From positions 829,503 through 893,502 of the forward strand of contig NZ_LR733312.1 of NCBI RefSeq assembly GCF_902506295.1: 64,000 nt of DNA, given 5' to 3'. The position numbers and the translations under genes were made by a program. This document shows, in pieces, positions 33,054-57,556 of the stretch. This DNA comes from Luteimonas sp. 9C. GTDB lineage: Bacteria > Pseudomonadota > Gammaproteobacteria > Xanthomonadales > Xanthomonadaceae. The notes beneath the pieces are model-generated. The model saw only the letters and a program-made list of their open reading frames with translations. It did no database searches and was not told the DNA's origin. Numbering within the stretch: the stretch's first letter is position 1; each line of letters opens with the position of its first letter.

Positions 33054-33067
33054 TGGAAACGCTTACA
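33054..33067. promoter_or_regulatory. CRE-like operator upstream of the LacI gene
   Basis: TGGAAACGCTTACA matches TGNAANCGNWNNCA, the catabolite-responsive-element shape used by LacI-family regulators. It ends 31 nt before the TTG start, consistent with autoregulation. Near-identical sites lie at 37443, 51313 and 57449. Confidence 0.75.
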
Positions 33068-33098
33068 GTCCGGCCCATCGCGGAAGCGGGAGTGCGGT

Positions 33099-34136
33099 TT
33101 GAGCGTGACGATCAAGGATGTGGCCAAGGCGGCCGGTGTCTCCGTGGCGACGGTGTCGCGCGCGCTCAACGGTCATCAGAACGTGGCCGACGCCGTGCGC
33201 GAGCGGGTGCTCGCCGTTGCCGGTGACCTGCGCTACAGCCCGCACCACGCCGCACGCAGCCTCAGCAGCCGACGCACGCAGACTGTCGGCGTCGTACTGC
33301 CCGACCTGCATGGCGAGTTCTTCTCCGAACTGATGCGCGGCATCGACCAGGTGGCGCGGACCCGCGGCCAGCATCTGCTGGTGTCGAGTTACCACGGCAA
33401 CCCGGAAGAGCAGGGCGCCGCCCTGCGTGCGATGCGTGGTCGGGTCGATGGTCTGCTGCTGATGTCGCCCTATGCGCACGACGTGGATTTCCTCGAGCGC
33501 AACGTCGATGCCAGTCTGCCGATGGTGCTGATCAACGCGGCGCAGGGTCGCGCGCAGCGCTCGGTCGGCATCGACAACTACGGCGGCGCGCGGACCATGG
33601 TCGCGCACCTGCTCGACGCCGGATACCGGCGCATCGCCTTCATCGATGGTCCCGAAGACAACGACGATGCCCGCGAGCGCAAGCGCGGATATCGCGACGC
33701 CCTGGCCGCCGCGGGCGCCGGCTACACGCCGTGGGAACTGCCCGGGCAGTTCGACGAGGATTCGGGACATCGTGCGGGGCAGGCCCTGCTCGCACTCGAG
33801 GCGCGGCCCGATGCGGTCTTCGCGGCCAACGACATGATGGCGATCGGGTGTCTGTATGCGCTCGGTCGCGGCGGCGTGCGCACGCCGGCAGACATCGCGG
33901 TCGTGGGCTTCGACGATATTCCGCTTGCACGCTACGTTCACCCATCGCTAACGACGATGCGCGTCGACATCGCTGAACTGGGTGCGCGCGCGTTGAAAGC
34001 GTTGCTGGAGATCGAGGAACCGGAGGCAGGCAGGGGGGCGGCTATCGCCCTGCTCGAACCCGGTCTCGTGATCCGCGATTCGAGTGGCACGGCCACCGAC
34101 CCATCGTCCAGTGGAGAGCCGTCGAACCGGTCTTGA
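33099..34136 (+). CDS. LacI family transcriptional regulator of the glucan/glucose locus
   Basis: 345 aa. The HTH and hinge occupy residues 3-62 (VTIKDVAKAAGVSVATVSRAL, in parts VTIKDVAKAA and GVSVATVSRAL, then HHAARSLSSRRTQTVG). The core is the periplasmic-binding-like LacI domain ending with FDDIPLARYVHPSLTTMR, typical of sugar-responsive members. The start is taken as TTG 33099, with GGGAG at 33088-33092, 6 nt upstream. A GTG at 33105 is possible. A CRE-like operator lies just upstream, and the same motif occurs before other genes of the locus, so it probably controls itself, the GH144-like gene, a paralogous (alpha/alpha)6 protein and the zwf/ATPase divergent pair. The inducer is probably a glucose derivative or sophoro-oligosaccharide (inferred). 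Confidence 0.9.
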   Translation: MSVTIKDVAKAAGVSVATVSRALNGHQNVADAVRERVLAVAGDLRYSPHHAARSLSSRRTQTVGVVLPDLHGEFFSELMRGIDQVARTRGQHLLVSSYHGNPEEQGAALRAMRGRVDGLLLMSPYAHDVDFLERNVDASLPMVLINAAQGRAQRSVGIDNYGGARTMVAHLLDAGYRRIAFIDGPEDNDDARERKRGYRDALAAAGAGYTPWELPGQFDEDSGHRAGQALLALEARPDAVFAANDMMAIGCLYALGRGGVRTPADIAVVGFDDIPLARYVHPSLTTMRVDIAELGARALKALLEIEEPEAGRGAAIALLEPGLVIRDSSGTATDPSSSGEPSNRS

Positions 34137-34145
34137 CCGGTCGAC
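34121..34145 (+). terminator. Hairpin overlapping the lacI stop
   Basis: GTCGAACCGGTC (34121-34132) is nearly complementary to GACCGGTCGAC (34135-34145), with one bulged A. The stop codon is in the apex. There is no T tract, so it may be a weak terminator. The remaining ~200 nt to the receptor start hold no gene and no CRE-like site. Confidence 0.35.
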
Positions 34146-34352: not shown

Positions 34353-37300
34353 ATGACACACCCCGACACCCGGCCGCGCGCCTTCTCGCGCTCTCTCCTC
34401 AGTCTCGCGCTGGGCGGTTGCCTGGCGATGGCGGCGCCCGCGCTGATGGCGCAGTCGACGTCCGCCACCATCCGTGGCCAGGTGATGGTGGACTCGTCGC
34501 CGGCGACCGACGCGCGCATCACGGCCGTGAATACCGCCACCGGTCTGAGCCGCAGCGTGGGCGTGACCGCGAACGGCAACTACAACCTGGCGGGTCTGCC
34601 GCCGGGCACGTACCGGCTGCAGGTCGAAGCGAACGGGCAGAGCACGTCGCAGACGGTGACCGTCGCGATCGGCCAGACCGCCACCCTCAACCTGGGGGTG
34701 GGTGGCGTCGCCGAAGCGGCGCCCGCGGGCGAGGCGACCGACCTGGACGCGGTGACCGTCACCGCCGACGTGCTGGTGGAAACCAAGACATCGGAAATCG
34801 CGACCTACGTCTCGCAGAAGCAGATCGAGTCGCTGCCGCAGAACTCGCGCAACTTTCTCGCCTTCGCCGACACCGTACCGGGCATGCAGTTCGTCAACTC
34901 GCCCAACGGCACCGAGTCGCAGCTGCGCAGCGGTGCGCAGGGATCGAGCAACATCAATGTCTTCATCGATGGTGTCGGCCAGAAGAACTACGTGACGCCG
35001 GGCGGCATCACCGGGCAGGACGACAGCCGCGGCAACCCGTTCCCGCAGTCGGCGATCGGCGAGTACAAGGTCATCACCTCGAACTACAAGGCCGAGTACG
35101 ACCAGATCAGCAGCGCGGCGGTGACGGCAGTGACCAAGTCCGGCACCAACGACTTCAGCGGCAGCTTCTTCTGGGACCGTACCGCGGACGAATGGAGCGC
35201 CAGGACACCGCGCGAGATCCAGGATGGTGTGCAGCAGAAGCAGGTGACCGAGCAGTACGGCGTGACCTTCGGCGGGCCGATCATCCAGGATCGCCTGCAT
35301 TTCTTCTTTGCCTACGATGCCAAGGACTTCGTGGTGCCGAAGGACACGCGTCCGCCGACGGTATTCGACCCGTCGTTGCTCCCGGCCGACCTTGCGGGCC
35401 TCTACGGCGGCTACAGCGTGCCGTTCAATCAGGATCTCTATTTCGGCAAGCTCAGCCTGCAGCTCGCGGAAGCCCATCTGATCGAACTGTCGCTGCGCTA
35501 TCGGGAAGAGGATTCCATCAGTCCCGGCAACGACATCAGCACGCCGTCGTTCGCGACCAACTTCACCAACGACGAAACGCGCGCGGACCTGCGCTACCAG
35601 TTCAGCAGCACGAACTGGTTGAACGATGCCCACATCACATTCGAAGAAGCTGCCTACAACCCGGTGCCGGTGACTGCGGCGCCCGGGCGTCGCTACACGA
35701 TCGTCGATCCCAACAATCCCGCGGTTCTGGATCTGGGCGTGCTCAACATCGGTGGTGGTCCGACGTTCCAGGACAAGGGGCAGCGTGGCGTCGGTTTCCA
35801 GAATGACCTGACGTTCTTCGGATGGGAGGGACACACCGTCAAGATGGGCGTGAAGTACAAGCAGGTGGACCTCAACGCGTTCCAGCAGAATCCGCCATTT
35901 CCGCAGTACTTCTTCGATGTCAACGAAAGCCTGACGCAGCCCTATCGCATCACGTTCTCCGCGCCGCTCGAAGGCCGCAATCCGAACGTGGAGTCGAGCA
36001 ACAAGCAGTTCGGCATCTACATCCAGGACGACTGGGACGTCACGGATCGCCTGACGCTCAACCTCGGCCTGCGCTGGGACTACGAGGACAATCCCAGCTA
36101 CACCGACAACGTGATGGATCCCGGCATTGCGGCGGCGATACGCGGCTGGAGCAATCTGGACAACGCCGATTACAACCGCGAAGACTTCATCAGCAACGGC
36201 CGGAACCGCAAGAACCAGAAGAACGCATGGCAGCCTCGCCTCGGCTTCTCCTACGACCTGAGTGGTGACGAGACCCACGTGCTGTTCGGCGGCGCGGGTC
36301 GTGCCTACGACCGCAACATTTTCGACCAGATGGCACGCGAGTACTACGGCGGCGCGTTCACGGGCTACGAGATCCGCTTCGACACGCCGCTGCATCCCTG
36401 CGACTCGGCAGTGGCGTCGAACTGCGTGCCTTTCGATCCGGCATTGCTGACGCAGGAAGGCATCGATGCCTACACCGCCGCCAACCCCCGCTCCGGCGGT
36501 GAGGTGTATGCGCTCAACAACGATCTGAAAACGCCGTACTCCGACCAGTTCAGCCTCGGTATCCGCAGCCAGTGGGAGGTGATGGGCCACAACTGGAGCA
36601 CGTCGGCGACCGTCGCGCATATCCGCAGTCGCGACGGCATCTACTTCCGTCTCGGCAACCGCTACGAGGACGGCAGCTTCCATCGGATTCCGGGTGCTCC
36701 GGACGCGACGTGGGGCGGCGTGCCGTTCAACCAGCCCATCCCCGGTTACGGCAATCTGATCCTGGGTGACAACGGCATCGAGTACAACCTCAACTCCCTG
36801 CTGCTGTCGTTCGACAAGCCCTACACCGAAGATTCGGGCTGGGGTTTCAATGTGGCCTACACGTTCAGCGATGCCGAAGAGAACCGTTCGGACGCATCGA
36901 ACGGCGAGTCGTTCTATTTCGACGGGTCGCGCGTCGACCAGCGCTTCTACCGCTCGACCGGTCTGGCCCGACATCGTCTCGTGCTTTCCGGCATCTACGA
37001 GCTGCCCTGGGAGACGACCTTCAGTGCCAAGCTGATCGTCTCGAGCCCGAGGCCGCGCAACGCGACCAATTGCATCGCCGATCCGGCGCCGGGCAATCCG
37101 TACTGCTTCTACGATCCCTATACGCCCGACGGCACATTCGGTTTCAAGCAGTTCGATTTCTCGCTCGAGCGCCGCTGGGACACCGGCACGGATCTGTCGT
37201 TCAAGGTGCGCGCCGACGTGCTCAATGCGTTCAATTGGCGGAACTGGAACCAGTACGACCTGAACCGCGGTGGATGGGGCATCGACGACGCGCAACTCAC

Positions 37301-37388
37301 CGTCAACGAGAACTTCGGTTCGCGTAGCGGCAACGAGATCCTGCTGCCGACGCGGACGTTCAAGCTCTCCTTCGGTATCGACTTTTAA
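34353..37388 (+). CDS. Oar-like TonB-dependent receptor
   Basis: 1,011 aa. A signal peptide (cleaved near LMA-QS, residue 33) is followed by a carboxypeptidase-regulatory-like Ig domain (~38-115: TIRGQVMVDSSPATDARITAVN, in parts TIRGQVMVD and GLPPGTYRLQV) and a plug (~150-270: NSRNFLAFADTVPGM, INVFIDGVGQKNY). A large barrel follows and ends FKLSFGIDF. This architecture is the Oar/SusC-like type that Xanthomonads use for oligosaccharide and peptide uptake. Here it sits between the LacI regulator and glycosidases, so it likely imports glucan fragments through the outer membrane. An excellent U-tailed terminator follows. ATG 34353 begins the signal sequence. No CRE-like site lies directly upstream, so readthrough from lacI is possible. 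Confidence 0.92.
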   Translation: MTHPDTRPRAFSRSLLSLALGGCLAMAAPALMAQSTSATIRGQVMVDSSPATDARITAVNTATGLSRSVGVTANGNYNLAGLPPGTYRLQVEANGQSTSQTVTVAIGQTATLNLGVGGVAEAAPAGEATDLDAVTVTADVLVETKTSEIATYVSQKQIESLPQNSRNFLAFADTVPGMQFVNSPNGTESQLRSGAQGSSNINVFIDGVGQKNYVTPGGITGQDDSRGNPFPQSAIGEYKVITSNYKAEYDQISSAAVTAVTKSGTNDFSGSFFWDRTADEWSARTPREIQDGVQQKQVTEQYGVTFGGPIIQDRLHFFFAYDAKDFVVPKDTRPPTVFDPSLLPADLAGLYGGYSVPFNQDLYFGKLSLQLAEAHLIELSLRYREEDSISPGNDISTPSFATNFTNDETRADLRYQFSSTNWLNDAHITFEEAAYNPVPVTAAPGRRYTIVDPNNPAVLDLGVLNIGGGPTFQDKGQRGVGFQNDLTFFGWEGHTVKMGVKYKQVDLNAFQQNPPFPQYFFDVNESLTQPYRITFSAPLEGRNPNVESSNKQFGIYIQDDWDVTDRLTLNLGLRWDYEDNPSYTDNVMDPGIAAAIRGWSNLDNADYNREDFISNGRNRKNQKNAWQPRLGFSYDLSGDETHVLFGGAGRAYDRNIFDQMAREYYGGAFTGYEIRFDTPLHPCDSAVASNCVPFDPALLTQEGIDAYTAANPRSGGEVYALNNDLKTPYSDQFSLGIRSQWEVMGHNWSTSATVAHIRSRDGIYFRLGNRYEDGSFHRIPGAPDATWGGVPFNQPIPGYGNLILGDNGIEYNLNSLLLSFDKPYTEDSGWGFNVAYTFSDAEENRSDASNGESFYFDGSRVDQRFYRSTGLARHRLVLSGIYELPWETTFSAKLIVSSPRPRNATNCIADPAPGNPYCFYDPYTPDGTFGFKQFDFSLERRWDTGTDLSFKVRADVLNAFNWRNWNQYDLNRGGWGIDDAQLTVNENFGSRSGNEILLPTRTFKLSFGIDF

Positions 37389-37399: not shown

Positions 37400-37432
37400 C
37401 TGCCGGTCCCCTTCGGGGTACCGGCAGTTTTA
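37400..37432 (+). terminator. Strong terminator after the Oar-like receptor
   Basis: CTGCCGGT (37400-37407) pairs with ACCGGCAG (37420-37427), and CCCC pairs with GGGG around a TTC loop, with one bulged T. TTTTAT follows. This is a canonical intrinsic terminator 11 nt after the stop. Confidence 0.92.
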
Positions 37433-37442
37433 TACTGGCCCC

Positions 37443-37456
37443 TGTAAACGATTTCA
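37443..37456. promoter_or_regulatory. CRE-like operator before the GH144-like gene
   Basis: TGTAAACGATTTCA fits TGNAANCGNWNNCA at every fixed base. It lies between the receptor terminator and the start at 37476, in a 43-nt space that must also contain the promoter, so occupancy should block transcription. Confidence 0.75.
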
Positions 37457-37475: not shown

Positions 37476-39140
37476 ATGCAATCCCGTCACCGTGCGTTCC
37501 AACTCCTGATCTCCGTCGCGCTCGCCGCGTTGTTCCTGGCCGGCTGCGGCAATCAGGCGCCCGCCGAGCCGGATGTGCCGCCGCCGAAACCCGGCCCCAT
37601 CGAGCAGGTGCCGGAGGTGGTGGCGCCCGTGGAAGAAGCGAAGGGACCACCGGAGCTGCCGCCGCTGTTCGCCGACATCGAGCGCCGCACGTTCCAGTAC
37701 TTCTGGGATACGACCAACGAGGTCAACGGTCTGACGCCGGATCGCTTCCCGTCGCGTCCGTTCTCCAGCGTTGCCGCGGTGGGATACGCGCTGACGGCCT
37801 ATCCAATCGGCATCGAACGTGGCTGGGTGAGCCGGACGCAGGCGGTGGACCGCACGCTCACGACGCTGAAGTTCTTCAGCAACGTCAAGATGGGCCCGCA
37901 GGCGACCGGCACCGGTGGTCATCAGGGCTTCTTCTATCACTTCATCGACATGCAGGACGGCCACCGGTTCGAGCCGTGGGTGGAGCTGTCGAGCGTCGAT
38001 ACGGGCCTGATGATGATGGGCGTGCTGTTCGCGCAGTCGTACTACGACCGTGACGATCCGCGCGAGGCCGAGATCCGCAAGCTCGCCGACCAGCTCTACC
38101 GCAACGTGCGCTGGCCGTTTCTGCAGCAGCGCGCACCGCTGATCTCGATGGGCTGGTATCCGGAAAGCGGCTTCATCGAGCACGACTGGACCGGCTACGA
38201 CGAGGCGATGCTGGTCTACATCCTCGCCCTGGGTTCGCCGACGCATCCGGTCGGCCCGGAAGCGTGGGAAGTCTGGACGCGCACCTACGACAAGTCTTGG
38301 GGCGTCTTCCGCGGCCAGGAATATCTCAGTTTCGCGCCGCACTTCGGCCACCAGTACACGCACGTCTGGGTGGATTTCCGCGGCATCCGTGACGACTACA
38401 TGCGCCGCCGCGGCATCGACTACTTCGAGAACAGCCGACGCGCGACGTATGCGCAGCGCCAGTACGCGATCGACAACCCCATGGGCTGGAAGGAGTACGG
38501 CGAGAACGTCTGGGGTCTGACCGCCAGCGACGGTCCGCAGCGCACCGACCAGGATTTCAACGGCGAGCAGCGCGAGTTCCGTCACTACAGCGCACGTGGC
38601 GCCGGTCTCGACGTCGCATTCGACGACGGGACGCTCGCACCCACTGCAGCCGTCGCGTCGATCGCCTTCGCGCCCGAAATCGTGATCCCGGCGACCGAGG
38701 AGATGCACCGCCGCTACGGCGATTACCTGTACTCGAGCTACGGCTTCCTCGACTCGTTCAACCCCAGCTTCACCTACGAAGACGTGCCGTTGAAGACGGG
38801 TCGCATCGTGCCGGGCAAGGGCTGGGTGGCCAGCGACTACATCGCGATCGACCAGGGCCCGATCCTGGCGATGATCGCGAACTACCGGAACGACTTCGTC
38901 TGGAACGTGATGAAGAAGAACCCCTACATCCGCGCCGGTCTCGAGCGCGCGGGCTTCACCGGCGGCTGGCTCGCCGGCGAGGACGAGCCCAAGGATTCCG
39001 GCCCGCCGGACGCCGACGCCGCCATGGCGCGCTCGATGGGCATCGCCGAATCGCGCGCCGCCAACCAGCCGGCCGAGCGCGACGGTCGTGCACCCGCACC
39101 GGCGCCGGCACGCGCGTCCGATCCGGTTCCGGCGGAGTAG
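37476..39140 (+). CDS. GH144-like (Glycoamylase domain) lipoprotein
   Basis: 554 aa. A lipobox LAGC (Cys near residue 25) predicts a lipoprotein. After a Pro/Glu linker the catalytic region (~65-500) is an (alpha/alpha)6 barrel of the PF10091 Glycoamylase family: FADIERRTFQYFWDTTNE, SSVAAVGYALTAYPIGIERGW, GGHQGFFYHFIDMQDG, SVDTGLMMMGVLFAQ and ASDYIAIDQGPILAMIANYR. This family includes GH144 endo-beta-1,2-glucanases, so cleavage of beta-1,2-glucans is the leading guess. The name glucoamylase is historical. The C-terminal ~60 residues are Ala/Pro/Asp-rich. It carries its own CRE-like operator and leads directly (4 nt) into the binding-protein gene, making a five-gene run to the discoidin-type protein. 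Confidence 0.85.
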   Translation: MQSRHRAFQLLISVALAALFLAGCGNQAPAEPDVPPPKPGPIEQVPEVVAPVEEAKGPPELPPLFADIERRTFQYFWDTTNEVNGLTPDRFPSRPFSSVAAVGYALTAYPIGIERGWVSRTQAVDRTLTTLKFFSNVKMGPQATGTGGHQGFFYHFIDMQDGHRFEPWVELSSVDTGLMMMGVLFAQSYYDRDDPREAEIRKLADQLYRNVRWPFLQQRAPLISMGWYPESGFIEHDWTGYDEAMLVYILALGSPTHPVGPEAWEVWTRTYDKSWGVFRGQEYLSFAPHFGHQYTHVWVDFRGIRDDYMRRRGIDYFENSRRATYAQRQYAIDNPMGWKEYGENVWGLTASDGPQRTDQDFNGEQREFRHYSARGAGLDVAFDDGTLAPTAAVASIAFAPEIVIPATEEMHRRYGDYLYSSYGFLDSFNPSFTYEDVPLKTGRIVPGKGWVASDYIAIDQGPILAMIANYRNDFVWNVMKKNPYIRAGLERAGFTGGWLAGEDEPKDSGPPDADAAMARSMGIAESRAANQPAERDGRAPAPAPARASDPVPAE

Positions 39141-39144
39141 GACC

Positions 39145-40515
39145 TTGCGCGCATTCCGACGCGTGCCCGGCGCCCGCCGCTTCATTGCGGCGGCGCGTGG
39201 CGTCTGCCTGCTGTTCGCGCTCGCGTTGCTCGCGGCCTGCGCGAAGCGCGACGAGCAGACCGTCGTCCGCTTCTGGGCGATGGGCCGCGAGGCCGAGGTG
39301 GTCTCGGAACTGGTGCGCGATTTCGAACGCGAGCACCCGGACATCCGGGTCGAGATCCAGCAGATTCCCTGGACGTCGGCGCACGAGAAACTGCTGACCG
39401 CGTTCGCGGCCGATGCGCTGCCCGACATCTGCCAGCTCGGCAACACCTGGGTGCCCGAGTTCGCGGTGCTCGGTGCGCTGGAGCCGTTGCAGTCGCGGGT
39501 GGATGCCTCGGCTGTCATCGAGGAAGCCGACTACTTTCCCGGCATCTGGCGCACCAACGTCGTCGACGACACCCTGCTCGGTGTGCCCTGGTATGTCGAC
39601 ACGCGCCTGATCTTCTATCGCAAGGACATCCTCGCCGCGGCCGGCGTCGCGGCACTGCCGCGCACGTGGCAGGAATGGGAAACCGCGATGGCGGCGGTCA
39701 AGACGCACGTCGGCCCGGATCGCTTCGCGGTGATGCTGCCGCTCAACGAGTTCGAGCAGCTGCTGTCGTTCGGACTGCAGCAGCGCGATCCACTGCTGCG
39801 CGACGACGACAGTCGCGGCAACTTCACCAGCCCGGGGTTTACCCGCGCGCTGGGCTTCTACACCAACATGTTCGAGCAGGGCTGGGCGCCGCGGATGTCG
39901 GAGACCCAGATCTCCAACGTCTGGGACGAATTCGGCCGCGGCTTCTTTTCCTTCTACGTGTCGGGCCCGTGGAACATCCGCGAGTTCCGCAATCGCCTGC
40001 CGGCCGAATTGCAGGACCAGTGGGGCACCGCGCCGCTGCCGGGACCGGACGGTCCGGGTGCGGGCATCGCCGGTGGCACGTCGCTGGTGATGTTCCGCGA
40101 TTCGCCCAACAAGGACGCGAGTTGGCAGCTGATGGAGTTCCTGTCGCGCCCCGAGATCCAGCAGCGTTTTCACGCGATGATCGGCAACCTGCCGCCGCGT
40201 CGCAGCACCTGGGAATTCCCGCAGCTGCGCGAAGACCCGTACGCGCAGGCGTTCCGCGACCAGCTCGAGCGCGTCGAGCCGACGCCGAAGGTGCTGGAGT
40301 GGGAGCGCATCGTGCAGGAGATGCGCCTGATGAGCGAACGCGTGGTGCGCGGTGGCATGGCGCAGGACGAAGCGCTGCAGGCGCTCGACGCACGCGTGGA
40401 CACGCTGCTCGAGAAGCGCCGCTGGGTGCGTGCGCGCGAGATGGAAGAAGGCGAGGGCATCGGTGCGGCCAGTGCGCCGCACGCCGCGGACCAGGGAGCT
40501 GCCCATGCGCGCTAG
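39145..40515 (+). CDS. Sugar ABC transporter substrate-binding lipoprotein
   Basis: 456 aa, family-1 extracellular solute-binding protein (maltose/oligosaccharide type). The signal has lipobox LAAC (ALALLAACAKR, near residue 32). VVRFWAMGREAEVVSELVRDFEREHPDIRV (parts: RFWAMGREAE, FEREHPDIRV), LPDICQLGNTWVPEF and YVDTRLIFYRKDIL are the typical lobes. The start is the TTG at 39145 with GGAG (39134-39137) 7 nt before it, because no ATG lies close. The C-terminal ~70 residues form a charged helix. The stop overlaps the permease start by 11 nt. It delivers oligosaccharide to the two permeases, and no ATPase gene is in this operon. Confidence 0.9.
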   Translation: MRAFRRVPGARRFIAAARGVCLLFALALLAACAKRDEQTVVRFWAMGREAEVVSELVRDFEREHPDIRVEIQQIPWTSAHEKLLTAFAADALPDICQLGNTWVPEFAVLGALEPLQSRVDASAVIEEADYFPGIWRTNVVDDTLLGVPWYVDTRLIFYRKDILAAAGVAALPRTWQEWETAMAAVKTHVGPDRFAVMLPLNEFEQLLSFGLQQRDPLLRDDDSRGNFTSPGFTRALGFYTNMFEQGWAPRMSETQISNVWDEFGRGFFSFYVSGPWNIREFRNRLPAELQDQWGTAPLPGPDGPGAGIAGGTSLVMFRDSPNKDASWQLMEFLSRPEIQQRFHAMIGNLPPRRSTWEFPQLREDPYAQAFRDQLERVEPTPKVLEWERIVQEMRLMSERVVRGGMAQDEALQALDARVDTLLEKRRWVRAREMEEGEGIGAASAPHAADQGAAHAR

Positions 40516-41383
40516 TACCGCCGGCTGGATCTTCGCCGGGCCGGCGCTGATCGTGCTCGGCATCTTCTTCGGCATCCCGGTCGCGTCGGCGCTGCTGCTG
40601 AGCCTGACCGACTTCGATCTCTACGCCCTGTCGGACATGTCGAACCTGCGCTTCGTCGCGCTGGGGAATTACGTCGATCTGCTGCAGACGCCGCTGTTCT
40701 GGAAGTCGCTCGGCAACACCGCGTATTTCGTCGTCATCGGCGTGCCGCTGTCGATCGGTGTGTCGCTCGGCGCCGCGCTGCTGCTCAACGCGAAGGTTGC
40801 GCGGTTCAAAGGCCTGTTCCGCACGGCGCTGTTCGCGCCGGTGGTGACCACGCTGGTCGCGGTTGCGGTGATCTGGCGCTATCTGTTCCACACCAGCTAC
40901 GGCCTGGTGAACTGGGCACTCGGCCACATCGGCATCGCGCCGGTCGACTGGCTGGGCGATCCGACGTGGGCGATGCCGACGATCATCCTGTTCGCCGTGT
41001 GGAAGAACTTCGGCTACAACATGGTGATCTTCATCGCCGGCTTGGCCGCGATTCCCGAAGATCTCTACGAGGCCGCGCGGATCGACGGCGCCTCGCGCTG
41101 GAAACAGTTCGTGCACGTCACGCTGCCGATGCTCGGACCGGTGCTGCTGGTGGTCGCGGTGATCACCGTGTCCGGTTATTTCCAGCTGTTCGCCGAGCCC
41201 TATGTGATGACGCGGGGCGACCCGCTGCAGAGCACCGTCAGCGTGCTGTACTTCATGTACGAGGAAGGCTTCATGTGGTGGAACCTGGGCCGCGCGTCGG
41301 CGGTGGCGTTCCTGCTGTTCCTGATCATCCTCGGCGTCACCACATTGCTGCTGCGCTTCGGGCGCAAGCGGGAGCTGGTATGA
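40505..41383 (+). CDS. Sugar ABC transporter permease (MalF/UgpA type)
   Basis: 292 aa with six predicted helices. The EAA loop that docks the ATPase is present (EAARIDGASRWKQFVHVTLP, residues ~197-216). The N terminus (AGWIFAGPALIVLGIFFGIPV) has the usual first helix. It lacks the long periplasmic domain of E. coli MalF, as in most oligosaccharide importers. It overlaps the binding-protein gene by 11 nt and the next permease by ATGA, so the three are translated as a unit. Confidence 0.93.
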   Translation: MRASTAGWIFAGPALIVLGIFFGIPVASALLLSLTDFDLYALSDMSNLRFVALGNYVDLLQTPLFWKSLGNTAYFVVIGVPLSIGVSLGAALLLNAKVARFKGLFRTALFAPVVTTLVAVAVIWRYLFHTSYGLVNWALGHIGIAPVDWLGDPTWAMPTIILFAVWKNFGYNMVIFIAGLAAIPEDLYEAARIDGASRWKQFVHVTLPMLGPVLLVVAVITVSGYFQLFAEPYVMTRGDPLQSTVSVLYFMYEEGFMWWNLGRASAVAFLLFLIILGVTTLLLRFGRKRELV

Positions 41384-42231: not shown

Positions 42232-42349
42232 GCAAGCCCGCTTGCGGACCACGGGTCCGCGGGCTTGCGAACGCCAGGCCACGGATGGCATGGCCGGACC
42301 ATCCGGCGCCTGTGCAGTTCCGCCATGGACGGCAGCGGAATCGTCGTGT

Positions 42350-48090: not shown

Positions 48091-51000
48091 CTACCAGCGC
48101 GCTTCGAGGCGCCGGAACGGCTTCGACAGGCGCACGCCACGCGCGTCGAAGTCGTCCACCGCGCGGCCATCGACCATGACCACGCTCGGCCGCGTGCGGC
48201 TCGGCCAGATCACCTGGACCGGCAGCGCGTCCTGCAGCCCGTCCGCGAGCGTGATCTCGAGCCGCGTGCCGGACTGTTTCGCCGCCATCGTCAGCGGTCC
48301 GTAAGCGGTCGGCAGCGCCCGCACCGACAGGCCGTCGCCGTCGAGCCAGGCCTGCGGCGCGCCGGGCAACAGCTGCAGATCGTCGTCGCCTTCGTGCAGC
48401 AGCAGGCCGACCAGCGTGCGGACGTACTCGGCACCGATCCACGTATGCGGCATGTCGCCGATGTAACCGGGATAGCGCGGACGCGAATGCACGACCTCGG
48501 GCCACATCTGCCACGCCAGCGGGCGGCGGTCGGCCAGCAGCCCGTCGAGCACGGTCTGCGCGTCGCCGGGCCGGTCCAGATGCACGAAGGTCAGCACGTT
48601 GCGCAGTTCGTAGGGCGTGTAGGCCCACAGCGCATCGGGCGCGGTGCGGTCGCCGAACTGCCGGGCCAGGTAGCGGTCGAAGGTGGTGCGCAGTTCGCGC
48701 TCGGGCAAGACGTGCCGCGCGCCGGTGGGATCGAGCGCGATCGACACGCTGGTGGGGTCGCTGTCACCCAGATCGGCCGATGACGGAATGAAGTCGATGC
48801 CCTTCCACGCGATGGTCGCGCGCAGCGACGCGGCGACCGCGTCCGACAGCAACCGTCCCTGTTCGCGCGCCCAGGCCGCCGTCTCCGCGTCGCCGAGTGC
48901 GTCGGCCAGCCAGGCCCCGTCGTGCCAGCCCTTGATGCCGTAGAAATCGTCCCAGTAGCTGTGCGTCGGCGTGGAATAGCCTTCGTGGCTGATCGACGGC
49001 GCGAGGATGCCGCGAAAGCGTTCGGGCGAGGGATGCGTGCCCATGTAACCCGCCACCAGCGTGCGTTCGCGCAATTCCTGTAGGAACCGCATCGCTGCGG
49101 TCACCGCCGGCAGGTACTCGCGGACGGTGTCCGGCCCGCCATCGAGACGCGCCACGTCGGCGACCAGCTGGATGTACTGGCCCTGGCTGTCGTGTTCGAT
49201 GTCCGAGCCGAAGCCGCGGTTGATGCTGCCGTCCTCGTTGAGGATCGGCGAGATCATGCCGTTGGGGTTGAGCGCGTGGTCGGTGTACCAGCGCAGGTAG
49301 TCGCGCGCGATCTTCGGCTGGCCCAGGCGCAGCAGCGCCGTGGCGGTCGCCGCGCCGTCGCGCAGGAACGAGCGGTTGTAGTTGCGCGGGCCGGGCTGCA
49401 TCGCCGGGCCGGTCTGGTTGACCAGCATGTATGCCGCCTGCGCGCGCAGCATGTCGACGAGGTCCTGGTCGGGCAGGCGGATGTCGAAGCTGTTGAAGCG
49501 ATCCGCCCAGCCGGCGGCGATCCGCGCGGCATGCGTGTCGAAAGCCTCCGAGGGCGTCGCGGCATCGCCGGTGAGCGCGGCGAGATCGAGCGCCGGCGGT
49601 TCCGTCAGTTCGCCCTTGGACGGGTCGAGCGCCGTGTTCCCCAGCGGCAATGCGATCACGATGTCCTGCGTGGCGCCCGGCGCCACCCGCACCGGATACG
49701 CGAGCATGCCGGCAGCGAGCCCGGCGGCGTCCGATGCTTCGCGCGCGGCGGGCGGTGTGCCGCGCGCCGCATCGGCGGTGATCTCGGTCTCGCCGTGCGC
49801 ACCGAACGGCGCGGTGCCGGCGGCGCCGACCGGCGTCATCGAGGTCAGCAGGGTGCGGCCGTCGACACGCACGCGGGTGTGGTCGGCGGTCTCATCGATC
49901 GCGATCTGCCGGATCGGCGACCAGCCGCCGTGCTGCCACGGCGGATTGACCTGCAGCGGACGCACCAGCAGCGACAGCGTGCCCTCGACGGGCCGCCGGC
50001 CGGTGTTGTGCAGGCGGTAGCGCATCAGCGTCACCGGCTGCCCGTTCTGTTCCAGCGCGAAGGCCTCGTTGCGGATCGTCAGATCGCGCTGGCCCTGCCA
50101 CTCGACCGAGGGCATCGGCATCCATCGGTCGCGCAGGGCATGGCGACGCTGCGGATCGTTGTCGGCGACGCGCGCCCGGCCGTCGCTGCCGCGCCAGACC
50201 GCCTGCAGCATCGGGCCGCCCTTGAAGGGCTCGAGGTTGCCGGATGCGTCGAGCAGCGATTTCTGCCGCCCGGCGGGAATGCCGAGCGCGGTCCAGTAGA
50301 CCTGTTGCTGGTGCAGCGACGAGGGGAACAGCGCGCCGTGCGTGCGCGAGGCGACGATCTCGTAGCGCCGGGTCGGTGTCAGCAGCTGTTTCGGGCCGAG
50401 CAGGCGCAGCCGCGCGATGCCCGGCGCACGTCCTTCGACCTCGCCGACGACCAGGCGCAAGGCGGTCGGCGCCAGCGGCGCTTCGCCCGCGAGCCACGAC
50501 CGCGTGCCGTCGCCGCCCGGGTCCTCGGCCAGCACGGTCCAGCGACCGTCGGCATCGCGCACTTCGAGCGTCGCGCCGTTGCGGGGACCGTCCCACCAGA
50601 CTTCGAGCCCGGCGATAGAGTCGGCGCGCGGCAGCGCGACCTCGAGCTGGCGGGTGCCGGGCGCAGCGCCCGCGGCCTCGACGGTGGCCGGCGCCGCGTC
50701 GACGGCGAACAGCGTCGCGCCGTCCACGCCGGGTGCGAGCCCGGACAGGCGCGGCGCCGCGTCCGCGGCGAGCGGCTCGAACTCGAAGATCGACGTCGCC
50801 CAGTCGGAGGATTTCGACGGGCTGGCGATGCGGACGTAGCGGGCCTCGCGCGCGGGAAACACGAGGGTGTCGGTGTCGCCGCGCGAATCGGTGCTGGTGT
50901 ACGCCACGTCCCACTGCGTGCCGTCGAGCGAGGTCTCGAGCGTCCAGCGCACCGGAAAGCCGCTGTCCCAGAGGATCGCGACGCCGCCGACGTCGGCCGG

Positions 51001-51270
51001 TTGCCCCAGATCCACCTGGAACCAGTGTCCGGGCAGGAAGGAACCACCCCAGCGCGTCGTGCGGTCGCCGTCGATGGCGTGCTGCGGGGCGAGTGCATCG
51101 ACCTGGGTGGAGGATGCCGAGGCGGTCCAGTCGGCGCGTGGCGGCAGGGACGCCGCCGCAGTGGCAGCGCTTGCGCCGCCGAGCAGGGCGAGCAGCAGCC
51201 GGCCCAGTGTGTGGCGGCCGGTGCGAGCGGTCGGGACGAGCGAGTCGTGGCACCCGGATCGGAGGGTCAT
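48091..51270 (-). CDS. Large exported protein: discoidin module plus (alpha/alpha)6 glycosidase-like region
   Basis: 1,059 aa with an N-terminal signal (LGRLLLALLGGASAATAAA, residues ~22-40) and no lipobox. A discoidin-type module (~45-165: DGDRTTRWGGSF, FQVDLGQPADVGG, YVRIASPS) is followed by a second beta module (~175-295), a beta-sandwich (~305-560) and the (alpha/alpha)6 region (~600-960). Blocks shared with the protein at 42454 include YNRSFLRDGA (D638), SISHEGYS, HSYWDDFYGIKGW, GIDFIPSSADLGD and YTPYELRNVLTF. It is therefore a paralogue on the opposite strand, soluble where the other is lipid-anchored. A perfect CRE-like operator lies 43 nt upstream. The enzymatic activity is unknown, probably a glycoside hydrolase or phosphorylase-related fold. 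Confidence 0.82.
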   Translation of the reverse strand: MTLRSGCHDSLVPTARTGRHTLGRLLLALLGGASAATAAASLPPRADWTASASSTQVDALAPQHAIDGDRTTRWGGSFLPGHWFQVDLGQPADVGGVAILWDSGFPVRWTLETSLDGTQWDVAYTSTDSRGDTDTLVFPAREARYVRIASPSKSSDWATSIFEFEPLAADAAPRLSGLAPGVDGATLFAVDAAPATVEAAGAAPGTRQLEVALPRADSIAGLEVWWDGPRNGATLEVRDADGRWTVLAEDPGGDGTRSWLAGEAPLAPTALRLVVGEVEGRAPGIARLRLLGPKQLLTPTRRYEIVASRTHGALFPSSLHQQQVYWTALGIPAGRQKSLLDASGNLEPFKGGPMLQAVWRGSDGRARVADNDPQRRHALRDRWMPMPSVEWQGQRDLTIRNEAFALEQNGQPVTLMRYRLHNTGRRPVEGTLSLLVRPLQVNPPWQHGGWSPIRQIAIDETADHTRVRVDGRTLLTSMTPVGAAGTAPFGAHGETEITADAARGTPPAAREASDAAGLAAGMLAYPVRVAPGATQDIVIALPLGNTALDPSKGELTEPPALDLAALTGDAATPSEAFDTHAARIAAGWADRFNSFDIRLPDQDLVDMLRAQAAYMLVNQTGPAMQPGPRNYNRSFLRDGAATATALLRLGQPKIARDYLRWYTDHALNPNGMISPILNEDGSINRGFGSDIEHDSQGQYIQLVADVARLDGGPDTVREYLPAVTAAMRFLQELRERTLVAGYMGTHPSPERFRGILAPSISHEGYSTPTHSYWDDFYGIKGWHDGAWLADALGDAETAAWAREQGRLLSDAVAASLRATIAWKGIDFIPSSADLGDSDPTSVSIALDPTGARHVLPERELRTTFDRYLARQFGDRTAPDALWAYTPYELRNVLTFVHLDRPGDAQTVLDGLLADRRPLAWQMWPEVVHSRPRYPGYIGDMPHTWIGAEYVRTLVGLLLHEGDDDLQLLPGAPQAWLDGDGLSVRALPTAYGPLTMAAKQSGTRLEITLADGLQDALPVQVIWPSRTRPSVVMVDGRAVDDFDARGVRLSKPFRRLEARW

Positions 51271-51312
51271 GCAGGCAGGGTAGGCGAAGGGAGAGCGGAC
51301 GCTACCACCGGC

Positions 51313-51326
51313 TGGAACCGGTTACA
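51313..51326. promoter_or_regulatory. CRE-like operator before the second paralogue
   Basis: TGGAACCGGTTACA matches TGNAANCGNWNNCA fully, and its centre AACCGGTT is a perfect palindrome. It lies in the 136-nt gap between eda (same strand, upstream) and the start at 51270, so it most likely governs the minus-strand glycosidase-like gene. Confidence 0.75.
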
Positions 51327-51406: not shown

Positions 51407-52074
51407 TCAGCCGCGCGCGTCGCGCACGATCTGCGCCGCACGCGCTGCGGTCTCGCGCACCCGGCCATAGTCGCCGGCGTCCAGCCAGCCCTTGTCGAGC
51501 ATCCACGAGCCGCCGATGCACAGCACGTTGGGCTGGGCCAGGAATTCGGCGGCGTTGGATTCCGAGATGCCGCCGGTGGGGCAGAAGCGCATGTCGTGCA
51601 GCGGTCCGGCGAGACCCTTGAGCATCGCCAGGCCACCGACCGCACTGGCCGGAAACAGCTTGCAGTTGCGGAAGCCACGCGCGCGCAGGGCCATGAATTC
51701 GGTCGGCGTCGCAGCGCCCGGCACGACGGGGATGTCGGCCTCGGCCAGGGCGTCGGCCAGTGCCGGCGGCGTGCCGGGCGTGACCAGGAAATCCGCACCG
51801 GCGTCGATCGACGCGCGGATGTGGTCGGCATCGAGCACGGTGCCGGCGCCGATCACGATGTCCGGGCGCTCGCGCTTGAGCATCGCCAGCGCGTCGATCG
51901 CGACCGGCGTGCGCAGCGTGAGCTCGAGCGTGTGCAGACCGCCTTCGAGCAGCGCATCGGCGATCGCGCGGGCTTCGTCGAGCGCGTGCACGGTGATCAC
52001 CGGCAGCACGCCGGCAGCACGCAGGAGCTCGGCTGCGCGCTGCTGGCGCTCGGACATGGTGGAAGCAGTGGCCA

Positions 52075-52075
<1 letters not shown>
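51407..52075 (-). CDS. eda: KDPG aldolase (2-keto-3-deoxy-6-phosphogluconate aldolase)
   Basis: 222 aa. Eda splits 2-keto-3-deoxy-6-phosphogluconate into pyruvate and glyceraldehyde-3-phosphate. The Schiff-base Lys is K139 in [13 protein letters not shown], with E51 in LELTLRTP and the phosphate-loop GGISESN. The length and motifs are normal for the class I trimeric enzyme. The start shares one base with the edd stop (TGATG), so it is coupled as the last gene of zwf-glk-pgl-edd-eda. A second Met at residue 7 is possible. Confidence 0.96.
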
Positions 52076-53991
<1,916 letters not shown>

Positions 53992-54079
53992 GGGCGGCGG
54001 CGATGTGAGAAACGGGCGCCCCGGGACGGGGCGGGGACGCGCGGATCGCACTGCGCGCAACGGTCGAACGGGGTGCGTC

Positions 54080-54832
54080 TCACGGACACCAGTGGACGTG
54101 CAGCGCGGCGCCCGGCGTGGTGAAGGCGATGCGCGCCGGAAACTCGGTCGCGTCGTCGCTCTGCAGCAGGCGATCGAGCAGGGCGCGCTTCTTCTCGCCG
54201 CGGATCAGCAGGATGCGGGTGTGCGCAGGTGTCAGGCCGGCGGGCGTCAGACTGATGCGACGCTGCCAGGTGCCGGCGCCGGGGCTGCCGCCGGCATCGA
54301 CGCCGACATAGGGCGAGGTGGCGGCGAGCGCGGCGTCGAGATCGACCATGCCGGGGAACAGCGAGGCGGTATGGCCATCGTCGCCCATGCCCAGCACGAC
54401 GACACCCGCGGGCTGGCGCGCGTGCAGATTGGCGGTGGAGACCGCTTCGTCGAACGGGCGGCCGGCGCGGGTGAGGGTTTCCAGCCGCGCCTTCTGCGCC
54501 TTGTTCTGGATCAGCGTCTCGCGCAGCAGGCGCGCATTGCTGTCGGGATCGTCGGGCAGCAGCCAGCGCTCGTCGACCAGCGCGACATCGACGCGGTCCC
54601 AGGCGAGCGGCGATTTCGACAGCGCCGCATACACCGGTCCCGGCGTCTTGCCACCCGAGAGCAGCACGCGCGCGCGCGGCTTGAGCTCCAGGTCGCGCGC
54701 GATGGCGGAGGAAATCGCGATCGCGGCGCCCCAGGTCCACTGGGTCGCCGATTCGTAGGCGTGCAGCTGCATGCGTCCATCGTCGCCGATTCCGCCTGCG
54801 ATGCCAAAGGCCGGGGCGCCGGTCGGCGTCAT
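54080..54832 (-). CDS. pgl: 6-phosphogluconolactonase
   Basis: 250 aa, DevB/SOL family. It hydrolyses 6-phosphogluconolactone made by Zwf. The NagB-like fold is shown by VLLSGGKTPGPVYAAL, VDVALVDERWLLPDDPDSN and VLGMGDDGHTASLFPG, the last being the catalytic His region. The N-terminal ~25 residues extend beyond the family start, so the inner Met (MQLHAYES, about residue 21) could be the actual start. ATG 54832 is preferred for its ATGA overlap with glk. Confidence 0.92.
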   Translation of the reverse strand: MTPTGAPAFGIAGGIGDDGRMQLHAYESATQWTWGAAIAISSAIARDLELKPRARVLLSGGKTPGPVYAALSKSPLAWDRVDVALVDERWLLPDDPDSNARLLRETLIQNKAQKARLETLTRAGRPFDEAVSTANLHARQPAGVVVLGMGDDGHTASLFPGMVDLDAALAATSPYVGVDAGGSPGAGTWQRRISLTPAGLTPAHTRILLIRGEKKRALLDRLLQSDDATEFPARIAFTTPGAALHVHWCP

Positions 54833-55827
54833 GCCGCTGCCCTGCGCGTGGCGATCGCAGCCGCGCCGAGCAGGCCGGCATGCGGATGCAGCACCGCGAC
54901 GGAAGGCACGCGGCCCATGTTCGGCGAGAAGCGGCCCTTGTGCTCGAAGCGCTGGCGGAAGCCCGAATGGCGGATCGAGTCGAGCATCTTGGGCACCAGG
55001 CCACCGGTCAGGAACACGCCGTCCCAGGCGCCGAGCGTCAGCACCAGATCGCCCGCGATCGCGCCGAACACCGCGCAGAACACGTCCACCGCACGTGCGC
55101 AGCGGGCGTCGCCGTCCCTTGCCCGCGCGGTGATGTCGGCAGGCTGCATCGGGCCCGGGTCGACCCCAGCGATTTCGCTCAGCGCGCGGTGGATGTTGAC
55201 CAGACCGGGACCGCAGATCAGGCGTTCGTTGGACACGCGTCCGAACTGCGCCGACAGGCGTTCGAGGATGGCGGTTTCTTCCGGCGTGCCGGGCGGAAAG
55301 CTGACGTGGCCGCCTTCGGTCTCCAGCGGGTAGTGCCTGCCGTCGCGGATCACGAGGCCACCGACGCCCAGACCGGTGCCGGGCCCGATGACCGCATACG
55401 TGCACGGGCCGGCCGGATCCTTCGGCACCGACCACGGCACGCCGCCGATGGCGCTGTAATCGCCGGGCTGCAGCAGGGGAATCGCCATCGCCTGGGCGGC
55501 GAAATCGTTGGTCAGCACGACGTCCTCGATGCCGAGCCGCTGCTGGGTGCGCGTGCGCGAGATCACCCAGGGATGATTGGTGATGCGTGCGTTGTCGCCC
55601 TCGACGCGACCGGCGACCGCGAGTACGGCGCGCGGCAGCGCGGCCTTGCCGTCGTGACCGGTCTGCTGGAGATAGTGCAGGGCCGCGTCTGCCAGTGACG
55701 GAAAGTCGGCGACCGGGAAGACCTGGATCGTGTCGAGCTGCAGCGGCGTCGGGCTGGCGGTATCGGCGAGTGCGAAACGCGCGTTGGTCCCGCCGATGTC
55801 GGCGAGCAGGGCGAGCGCAGCCGTCAC
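54829..55827 (-). CDS. glk: Glucokinase
   Basis: 332 aa, bacterial ROK-independent glucokinase (PF02685). It phosphorylates free glucose, matching glucose released by the GH3 enzyme. LLADIGGTNARFAL (residues 8-21) is the ATP-phosphate loop, LTNDFAAQAMAIP contains the catalytic Asp, and VIGPGTGLGVGGLV and LTGGLVPKML are the other nucleotide segments. It starts at GTG 55827, overlapping the zwf stop (GTGA), and ends overlapping pgl (ATGA). The alternative upstream frame to 55938 lies inside zwf and is not credible. Confidence 0.94.
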   Translation of the reverse strand: MTAALALLADIGGTNARFALADTASPTPLQLDTIQVFPVADFPSLADAALHYLQQTGHDGKAALPRAVLAVAGRVEGDNARITNHPWVISRTRTQQRLGIEDVVLTNDFAAQAMAIPLLQPGDYSAIGGVPWSVPKDPAGPCTYAVIGPGTGLGVGGLVIRDGRHYPLETEGGHVSFPPGTPEETAILERLSAQFGRVSNERLICGPGLVNIHRALSEIAGVDPGPMQPADITARARDGDARCARAVDVFCAVFGAIAGDLVLTLGAWDGVFLTGGLVPKMLDSIRHSGFRQRFEHKGRFSPNMGRVPSVAVLHPHAGLLGAAAIATRRAAA

Positions 55828-57245
55828 GATTTGCGTCCGTTGTGGGTGGTCAGCGTGCGCGGCAGGAACGGCTGCGCTTCGACCGGCCCCCAGCTGCCGG
55901 CCGGGTAGTCGCGCACCGGCGTGCCGGCTTCGCGCCACGCGGCGCTGACGCTGTCGATCCAGCGCCAGGCGGCCTCGACCTCGTCATCGCGCACGAACAG
56001 CGTCTGGTCACCCTTGAGCGCGTCGATCATCAGGCGTTCGTAGGCGATGCGGCGCTTGGGTGGCAGCATCGCCAGATCCAGCGACATCGGCTGCAGTTCG
56101 TTGGCCGCCCATTCGGACGCGGCCAAGCTGCCCATCAGGCCGAGTTCGATCGTCTCTTCCGGCTGCAGGCGCACGCGCAGTTGGTTGGCACGCGCGCGCT
56201 TGCGCTCGCCCGGCCCGAAGAGCCAATGCGTGACCGGCTTGAACGTCACCACGACCTCGGTCGTGCGCGAGGGCATGCGCTTGCCGGTGACCAGCCGGAA
56301 CGGCACGCCGGCCCAGCGCCAGTTGTCGATCCATGCGCGCAGGCCGACGAAGGTTTCCACGTCGTCATGACCGCCGTGCTTGAAGCCCTGCACGGCCTGG
56401 CCGTCGACGACGCCGGGCGCATAGCGGCCGCGCACGCTGTCGGCCGCGGCATCGGCGGGCGACATCGGCCGCAGTGCGCGCAGCACCTTCTTCTTCTCTT
56501 CGCGGATGCTGTCGGTATCCATCGCCGCCGGCGGCTCCATCGCTATCAGCGCCAGCAGCTGCAGCATGTGGTTCTGCACCATGTCGCGCAGCGCGCCGTA
56601 GTCGGCGTAATAGCCTTCGCGGCCGTCCACGCCGGCGGTCTCGGCGACGATGATGTCGACCGACTCGATCCAGCGCCGTTCCCACGTCGCCTCGAACAGC
56701 GTGTTGCCCAGGCGCAGCGCGAGCAGGTTCTGCACCGGCGCCTTGCCCAGGTAGTGGTCGATGCGGAAGATCCGCGATTCGTCGAGCGCCGACTTCAACG
56801 TGGCGTCGATTTCCTGCGCACTGGCCAGGTCGTGGCCGATCGGCTTCTCGAGCACCAGCCGCGACGGCGCTTCCAGCAGTCCCGCGGCCTTGAGCCCGCG
56901 GCAGGCGGATGCGAACAGGTTCGGCGGCGTCGACAGGTAGCTCACCGCCGGCCGGTCCGCGAAGCGCGACAGGGCCGCCGCCATCCCATCGGCATCGCCG
57001 AGGTCCACCGCCACGTACTGGATGCGGCGCAGCAACTCGTCGACCAGCGCACTGTCGTACTCGTCGCCCAGGCGCTCGCGCAGCCAGTCGCGGAAGCTGG
57101 CGTCGTCGTGCTCGCTGCGCGCGATCGCGATCACGCGGAAGGTGTCCGGCAGCAAGCGGTCGCGCTGCAGGTGCAGCAGGGACGGGAATAGATAGCGTTG
57201 CGCCAGGTCGCCTGTGGCGCCGAACAACAGCAGGGAGTCGTGCAT
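55824..57245 (-). CDS. zwf: Glucose-6-phosphate dehydrogenase
   Basis: 473 aa. Zwf oxidises glucose-6-phosphate to the lactone with NAD(P)+, the entry to the Entner-Doudoroff route. [17 protein letters not shown] (residues 5-21) is the coenzyme loop, [10 protein letters not shown] follows, and FRIDHYLGK (160-168) is the substrate-binding signature with its Lys and His. First gene of the zwf-glk-pgl-edd-eda operon. The 311-nt region before it is shared with the divergent ABC ATPase and holds a perfect CRE-like operator. ATG 57245 begins the conserved strand. Confidence 0.96.
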
Positions 57246-57556
57246 GGGCGCCGGGACCGTCTCGGGTTCAGGAAAGGGAATCACGGAGTGTGTCGCCGGA
57301 GACGTGCGGATCGCAACGCCCGGAGACCGATGCGTCGAGTGGAACATGTCCAGCGCTGTCAGTCGACGTGCGGCGCGCGATGCGCGCTTGGATGGATGCG
57401 GTCGTTCGTTGCGCCACGCTGTGCCTCCCACACATCCGCCGGCTGGAATGGAAACGATTACATGCCAGAATAGCGCAATCGCATCACAGCGCGCGGTTCA
57501 CGCGGGCGACGGCACGATGCGGTCCACGACGGTTTGCGACACACACGGGAGCGTGC
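57246..57556. other. Shared promoter region of zwf operon and ABC ATPase
   Basis: The 311 nt between divergent starts include the CRE-like site at 57449-57462, 95 nt before the ATPase start and about 204 nt before zwf. No gene or RNA is supported. One regulator bound here could act on both directions. Confidence 0.55.
57449..57462. promoter_or_regulatory. CRE-like operator between zwf and the ABC ATPase
   Basis: TGGAAACGATTACA differs by one base from the site before the LacI gene and fits TGNAANCGNWNNCA completely. The shared motif ties glucose catabolism and transporter ATPase expression to that regulator. Confidence 0.75.

What the first reader, a model, noticed from the sequence alone, without database searches (positions are those of the whole stretch)
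33054..57462. A CRE-like LacI regulon linking glucan uptake, glycosidases and the Entner-Doudoroff operon
Four 14-bp sites (33054, 37443, 51313, 57449) fit TGKAAMCGVTTWCA and match the TGNAANCGNWNNCA shape at every fixed base. They sit precisely before the LacI gene itself, the GH144-like gene, one large glycosidase-like gene and the divergent zwf/ATPase pair. I saw no fully matching site elsewhere in the window by eye. One sugar-sensing repressor would then control outer-membrane uptake, hydrolysis, inner-membrane import and glucose catabolism together.
Basis: partly seen in the sequence, partly recalled or inferred. Interest (0 to 1): 0.75.

Follow-up and report, generated by a model that had tools for sequence, protein, structure and literature searches.

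The report
Glucan-and-glucose LacI regulon in Lysobacteraceae
A single sugar-sensing repressor protein appears to switch on, together, the genes by which these bacteria take up and cut a bacterial glucan and the genes that burn the resulting glucose, and the same DNA switch is found in many genera of their family.

Summary
The four sites are the only matches in the window (0.39 expected), and the genome holds 11 full palindromes against none of a reversed control. Comparison makes this a well-supported regulon. All 39 genus genomes with the LacI orthologue and a close zwf orthologue carry the operator upstream of the Entner-Doudoroff operon; the two with zwf but no LacI do not. A 24-bp "-10 box + operator" module occurs once per genome in 93 of 297 family genomes (15 of 54 genera, control 0), and 91 of these 93 have the LacI orthologue. 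The glucan is most likely beta-1,2-glucan: the GH144 protein closely matches a characterised Xanthomonas endo-beta-1,2-glucanase. Operators overlap core promoters, so repression relieved by a sugar is likely; binding, effector and expression are untested. The regulon is wider than four sites: a GH3 gene, a second TonB receptor, a glycosidase-like paralogue (one-mismatch site) and, strikingly, a DUF481 gene near the glucan-synthesis genes opgGH. The mechanism is ordinary; eight literature searches showed no description of this circuit.

The parts
33054..33067 (+). operator TGGAAACGCTTACA, first base 45 bp before the lacI start, in the spacer/-10 region of the lacI promoter (TTTACA 33040-33045, TACAGT 33064-33069, inferred)
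   Evidence: full palindrome at the same place in the first 20 of 20 loci; 44 full + 28 one-mismatch of 78 relatives
33099..34136 (+). LacI-family repressor, 345 aa, recognition pair VA in GVSVATVSR
   Evidence: Pfam LacI + Peripla_BP_3; orthologue in 45 of 52 genus genomes
34353..37388 (+). TonB-dependent receptor without a plug-domain hit (start inferred)
37431..37456 (+). -10 TATACT (37431-37436) plus operator TGTAAACGATTTCA (37443-37456)
37476..39140 (+). GH144 endo-beta-1,2-glucanase-like protein, close homologue of XcSGL/XCC2207
   Evidence: 883 bits to 8xul; SGL residues E243/F290/Y371 conserved
39088..40515 (+). ABC solute-binding protein (ORF limits; true start later)
   Evidence: Pfam; PDB 3uor, then Lin1841 5ysb
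40505..41383 (+). ABC permease 1 (start inferred)
41380..42231 (+). ABC permease 2
42265..45711 (+). large CBM32-bearing protein, paralogue of 48091-51270 (31% identical over the alignment), ORF limits
45775..48069 (+). GH3 beta-glucosidase-like protein
48091..51270 (-). 1059-aa protein, CBM32 plus predicted beta-sandwich and helical barrel, glycosidase-like, no family assigned
   Evidence: low-confidence model
51299..51326 (-). operator TGTAACCGGTTCCA (51313-51326) with extended -10 TGGTAGCGT downstream (TAGCGT 51299-51304, inferred)
51407..52303 (-). eda, KDPG aldolase (ORF limits)
52075..54060 (-). edd, phosphogluconate dehydratase (ORF limits)
   Evidence: TIGR01196, above cut-off
54080..54832 (-). 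pgl, 6-phosphogluconolactonase
54829..55938 (-). glk, glucokinase (ORF limits)
55824..57245 (-). zwf, glucose-6-phosphate dehydrogenase
57449..57472 (-). 24-bp module TATTCTGGCATGTAATCGTTTCCA: -10 of the ED operon (57467-57472) plus operator (57449-57462)
   Evidence: operator in 39 of 39 genus genomes with LacI and a zwf orthologue; exact module in 93 of 297 family genomes
57557..58654 (+). MalK/MsmK-like ABC ATPase, probable motor of the 39088-42231 importer (inference)
   Evidence: Pfam

Best explanation
This is an autoregulated LacI-family repressor regulon. Without inducer the LacI protein sits on 14-bp palindromes (TGNAANCGNTTNCA) that overlap the core promoters of (1) lacI plus the downstream TonB receptor, (2) the GH144-ABC importer-CBM32 protein-GH3 operon, (3) the second CBM32 protein, and (4) the divergent zwf-glk-pgl-edd-eda operon and ABC ATPase. 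An inducing sugar from beta-1,2-glucan breakdown (glucose or a sophoro-oligosaccharide most likely; a phosphorylated Entner-Doudoroff intermediate is possible) releases it. Outer-membrane uptake, hydrolysis, import and Entner-Doudoroff catabolism then rise together. Shown computationally: the sites, their conservation, their place over likely promoters, co-occurrence with this LacI, gene identities. Inferred: binding by this protein, repression, operon limits, effector, substrate.
For: Sites far above chance (349 against 18 control matches in 52 genomes). Full palindrome 45-57 bp before lacI in the first 20 of 20 relatives listed, and full or one-mismatch within 250 bp in 72 of 78 relatives incl. 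Rhodanobacter, Luteibacter and Massilia. ED operator in 39 of 39 genus genomes with LacI and a zwf orthologue of 72% identity or more; absent in the 2 such zwf genomes without LacI. LacI-less genus genomes: 5 palindromes in 7 genomes; LacI-bearing: 344 in 45. Module in 93 of 297 family genomes, 91 of them LacI-positive; 18 of 18 non-genus loci fetched (of 78 such matches; 14 genera) place it between the ATPase and GH1/zwf/glk genes. A -10-like box abuts the operator. GH144 and binding-protein identities. The three other LacI-domain hits of the genome have other residues at the recognition pair, MK, QP, KA.
Against: No binding, expression or ligand data. 86 of 177 LacI-positive family genomes lack the exact 24-bp module; part of this is the strictness of the pattern (G021 and G034 have the operator, but not the exact module), the rest was not resolved. 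G008 has a partial LacI match (residues 1-203) and its 51%-identical zwf has no operator. Of the 7 LacI-less genus genomes 5 are 90% complete or less, and the two with zwf, G030 and G036, are 89% and 73% complete. Genomes share ancestry, so the Fisher value overstates independence. The TonB receptor in the window has no operator of its own. Two of the 20 near relatives (L039, L041) show only the lacI operator in the stretch held.
Confidence: 0.85

Rival explanations
1. The palindromes are bound by a different LacI-family protein or by several, and this LacI controls only its own gene and the GH144 operon.
For: LacI-family operators are alike (recalled); the genome has three other LacI-domain hits, and many genus genomes carry further LacI paralogues, 39% identical or less.
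Against: The site before lacI itself is of the same type as the others; the other three hits have different recognition residues; operator presence tracks this orthologue.
Confidence: 0.1
2. The protein is chiefly a regulator of central carbon metabolism sensing a phosphorylated Entner-Doudoroff intermediate (like CceR), with the glucan genes as one branch of its regulon.
For: The ED/ATPase module recurs once per genome in 15 genera; CceR, a LacI-family regulator sensing 6-phosphogluconate, exists (PMC5507952, passages seen).
Against: lacI lies next to the glucan genes in the first 20 of 20 relatives; in 7 of 18 fetched loci the module fronts GH1 with no zwf seen in the stretch; six genus genomes without a close zwf orthologue keep LacI.
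Confidence: 0.25
3. The sites are chance or compositional matches.
For: One-mismatch matches are no commoner than the control in this genome; one full site, before ahpC, has no counterpart in three relatives.
Confidence: 0.01

Closest known systems
GluR of Caulobacter (CC2053), Ravcheev et al. 2014 (PMC4052901, abstract lines and passages seen)
   Same: LacI-family regulator predicted to control zwf-pgl-edd-glk, with a site before its own gene and glucose proposed as inducer; BglR paralogues predicted to control beta-glucoside genes.
   Different: Alphaproteobacteria; a 20-bp consensus whose letters are not in the passages I read; no beta-1,2-glucan operon mentioned there. Orthology with our LacI was not tested.
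Listeria innocua lin1838-lin1843 cluster (PMC3960220, one passage seen)
   Same: LacI gene beside an ABC importer and a putative GH3 beta-glucosidase for beta-1,2-gluco-oligosaccharides; the binding protein Lin1841 is our second-best PDB hit.
   Different: Uses a GH94 phosphorylase; no TonB receptor, GH144 or ED operon in that passage; regulation only suggested there.
Xanthomonas campestris XCC2207 (XcSGL) and XCC2208 (PMC12102758 and PMC1790865, passages seen)
   Same: XcSGL hydrolyses beta-1,2-glucan and has a solved structure, 883 bits to ours; XCC2208 is a TonB receptor without a canonical plug, as ours.
   Different: No regulator or operator of these genes in the passages I read.
CcpA/CRE of Firmicutes (recalled)
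   Same: Operator shape and LacI-family protein; CcpA is among the better PDB hits of our LacI.
   Different: Here the regulator lies beside its targets and the set of full sites is small (11); HPr was not examined.

Membership tests
LacI-family transcription factors | N-terminal LacI HTH and periplasmic-binding-protein-like sensor domain | tested here: met
   Pfam PF00356 and PF13377 above cut-off
LacI-family transcription factors | even palindromic operator with central CG, at the own gene and at targets | tested here: met
   as sequence and conservation; binding not shown
LacI-family transcription factors | effector-controlled DNA binding | not testable with these tools
   needs purified protein
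GluR (Caulobacter) | a LacI protein controls the zwf/ED operon | tested here: inconclusive
   supported by operator conservation and co-occurrence, not by binding or expression
GluR (Caulobacter) | orthology with CC2053 | not tested
   CC2053 was not fetched
GH144 endo-beta-1,2-glucanase | sequence family | tested here: met
   PF10091; XcSGL 8xul 883 bits over residues 17-537
GH144 endo-beta-1,2-glucanase | SGL-clan residues E239, F286, Y367 (XcSGL numbering, PMC12102758) | tested here: met
   E243, F290, Y371 in alignment; the offset was set on my reading that the Q in the PDB chain is the paper's E239Q mutation, and F and Y then fall in place
GH144 endo-beta-1,2-glucanase | activity on beta-1,2-glucan | not testable with these tools
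   enzyme assay needed
CcpA global catabolite control | HPr-Ser-P co-repressor and genome-wide CRE regulon (recalled) | not tested
   only the number of full sites was counted (11); HPr not examined

The most novel reading that the evidence does not exclude
The same repressor couples use of beta-1,2-glucan to the cell's own periplasmic glucan system. A DUF481 (outer-membrane-protein-like) gene near opgGH carries the operator at its start in all 14 loci with a homologue of 44% identity or more, among 20 opg loci not picked by their sites (10 full, 4 with one mismatch). The circuit may therefore be a glucan recycling or exchange system, with glucose from shed osmoregulated glucan fed straight into the Entner-Doudoroff pathway.
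Probability: 0.3. Interest if true: 0.7.

Novelty: new member of a known kind. Interest (0 to 1): 0.52.

Why it matters
If true, it gives Lysobacteraceae a defined local regulator that ties a bacterial glucan's uptake and digestion to glucose oxidation. It predicts roles for several unassigned genes (two CBM32 glycosidase-like proteins, a plugless TonB receptor, a DUF481 protein near opgGH). It also gives a testable link to the cyclic beta-1,2-glucan that Xanthomonas, of the same family, makes (PMC11228985, abstract lines and passages seen).

Tried and rejected
opgG itself as a target. Full palindromes about 445-700 bp upstream of MdoG were seen in seven loci; in the four I opened (L274, L276, L279, L280) they lie inside the upstream gene. 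Those 22-37 bp before the MdoG domain match (L270, L271, L296) lie inside the MdoG open frame. The one-mismatch site before our own opgG (C2:633) has no full or one-mismatch counterpart in the opg loci of G012, G014 and G047. Dropped.

ahpC site (C2:1640224): no counterpart among the site-centred pieces of G012, G014, G047; dropped. Sites between pyrG and a gyrB-like gene (C2:1401619), after dnaG (2259607) and before a phasin gene (2067765, in 2 of 3 relatives) are conserved, but the DNA there is 78-94% identical anyway, so I leave them open.

The first DUF481 set (10 loci) was partly chosen because a site was known nearby (6 of 10); the set of 20, not picked by sites, is the one counted. In it, one further hit at 27% identity (G046) has no operator before it (a full palindrome lies about 0.7 kb away) and 5 loci have no DUF481 hit. 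G041, without a LacI orthologue, has one of the four one-mismatch sites.

Structure of the 1059-aa protein: mean pLDDT 67.5; Foldseek's best hit is an exo-arabinanase (8ic6), followed mostly by GH94 phosphorylases, with GH15, GH116 and GH95 enzymes lower, TM by query length at most about 0.4. A broad fold, not a function. The second structure job was not used.

A script to tally recognition pairs in relatives matched only 16 of 80 sequences and is not used.

Literature: one search returned no paper; searches showed no description of this regulon in the listings, and none was in the passages read. Most subscription journals are not in that library.
Full report
Setting. The window is C2:829503-893502 of a 3.35-Mb genome in two contigs. 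The nearest named relatives by the LacI protein are Luteimonas and other Lysobacteraceae (the best 80 of 171 relatives were kept), so I treat it as Luteimonas-like.

The observation. In the whole genome there are 11 full palindromes and none of the reversed pattern (places). With one mismatch allowed, matches do not exceed the control (38 against 45), so I use one-mismatch sites only where position is conserved.

Genes. The cluster reads lacI, TonB receptor, GH144 enzyme, ABC binding protein, two permeases, a large CBM32 protein and GH3 on the plus strand; then on the minus strand a paralogous CBM32 protein and zwf-glk-pgl-edd-eda; then a MalK-type ATPase on the plus strand. I saw no ATPase beside the permeases; the one across the 57449 operator is the obvious candidate (inference). 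The GH144 protein gives 883 bits over residues 17-537 to the solved Xanthomonas enzyme XCC2207, which hydrolyses beta-1,2-glucan (PMC12102758, passages seen). Its three clan residues are conserved. The binding protein's best PDB hits are 3uor and then Lin1841, 5ysb, whose cluster is linked to beta-1,2-gluco-oligosaccharides in PMC3960220 (passage seen). Hence beta-1,2-glucan as the likely substrate.

Conservation at lacI. In the first 20 of the 20 loci L029-L048 a full palindrome begins 45-57 bp before lacI. Of 78 relatives with enough upstream DNA, 44 have a full and 28 only a one-mismatch palindrome within 250 bp, 6 none (2 of the 80 loci were dropped as too short). Inside the cluster the second operator moves: in the window's near relatives it precedes GH144, in others the TonB receptor, in two loci (L036, L038) both, in two (L039, L041) neither.

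Conservation at the Entner-Doudoroff operon. zwf was found in 42 of 52 genus genomes, 41 of them at 72% identity or more. Thirty loci came with that search and the upstream regions of the other 12 were fetched by hand. All 39 genomes that have both this zwf and the LacI orthologue show a full palindrome upstream. The ATPase is seen on its far side in 28 of the 39; in the other 11 the piece held ends before it. In four of those I looked for the gene between operator and zwf and found a GH1-type frame (L136, L139, L143, L147; Pfam run on L136 only), so the operator stays at the head of the operon. The two zwf genomes without LacI, G030 and G036, have no full palindrome there; they are 89% and 73% complete and show no close ATPase orthologue beside zwf. 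G008, with a partial LacI match and a 51% zwf, has none either. Across the 39 sites there are nine sequence variants; the TATTCT box just upstream is 90-100% conserved at each base. The fixed operator bases are identical by choice of the pattern; what counts is that none of the 39 lacked it.

Family-wide. The 24-bp module TATTCTNNCATGTAANCGNTTNCA occurs once per genome in 93 of 297 genomes, 15 of 54 genera; the control pattern occurs in none. Of the 78 matches outside the genus I fetched 18, from all 14 genera: all 18 lie between the ATPase and GH1, zwf, glk, pgl or edd genes. In 7 of the 18 no zwf was seen in the stretch and the module fronts GH1, which hints that the beta-glucosidase was an early target. 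The LacI orthologue (E 1e-70 or better) is in 177 of 297 genomes. Of the 93 module genomes 91 have it, the two exceptions (G168, G243) being 76% complete; of the 204 without the exact module 86 have it (Fisher 1.3e-23; relatedness not corrected). Some of the 86 carry the operator with a slightly different -10 (G021, G034).

Who binds. The genome has four LacI-domain hits. Their recognition pairs are VA (ours), MK, QP and KA; that an A at the second place goes with CRE-like operators is recalled from CcpA, not tested. LacI-less genus genomes carry 5 palindromes in 7 genomes, LacI-bearing ones 344 in 45; 5 of those 7 are 90% complete or less.

How it works. At GH144 and zwf the operator starts 6 and 4 bp after a -10-like box, at lacI it covers the spacer and -10, at the CBM32 gene it lies just before an extended -10 (promoter boxes assigned by eye). 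Steric repression fits all four. The inducer is unknown.

More of the regulon. Six of the seven full sites outside the window are at the same place in close relatives G012, G014 and G047 (one of them in 2 of 3). Two precede obvious partners: a GH3 gene, and a TonB receptor followed by a tryptophan-halogenase-like gene, the receptor frame beginning about 490 bp away. A 57% paralogue of the CBM32 protein (C1:7659) has a one-mismatch site, also seen in three relatives. The most surprising is a DUF481 gene near opgGH (opgG by Pfam; opgH by position and recall). In 20 opg loci not picked by their sites, 14 have a homologue at 44% identity or more and all 14 have the operator ending within about 10 bp of the start of the match (10 full, 4 one-mismatch); one further 27% hit has none and five loci have no hit.

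Known and new. A LacI protein over an Entner-Doudoroff operon is known as a prediction (GluR, PMC4052901, passages seen), and a LacI gene beside a beta-1,2-glucan cluster was noted in Listeria. The combination in this family I did not find in the literature searches listed. It is a new member of a known kind, unusually well conserved.

Noticed in passing
L109:7699-8388 (genome C2, minus) with operator 8392-8405: DUF481 gene near opgG with a conserved LacI-type operator at its start.
   Followed up: yes
window 42265-45711 and 48091-51270: Two paralogous CBM32 proteins with no assigned glycosidase family; the second has a low-confidence model resembling GH94/GH15-type folds. 19 of the 20 loci L029-L048 show the first beside the importer; L036 is cut short.
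   Followed up: partly
genome C1:7659-10733 (L225): A third copy, 57% identical to the 48091 protein, with a one-mismatch operator upstream also present in three relatives.
   Followed up: partly
genus genomes G004, G011, G015, G022, G031, G035, G038, G040, G041, G048: No zwf match in 10 of 52 genus genomes; five of them, G004, G022, G038, G040, G048, keep the LacI orthologue: apparent loss of the Entner-Doudoroff entry step, or divergence.
   Followed up: no
L052, L056, L059, L063, L078 (Massilia), upstream of lacI: Paired sites about 142 bp apart (full at about -194, one-mismatch at about -51), which would allow a repression loop.
   Followed up: no
L110:8425-13592: Operator upstream of a second TonB receptor and a tryptophan-halogenase-like gene; the operator letters drift but stay palindromic in relatives.
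   Followed up: partly
L111:8620, L114:8608, L113:7766: Full palindromes between pyrG and a gyrB-like gene, after dnaG, and before a phasin gene, conserved in close relatives; function unclear.
   Followed up: no
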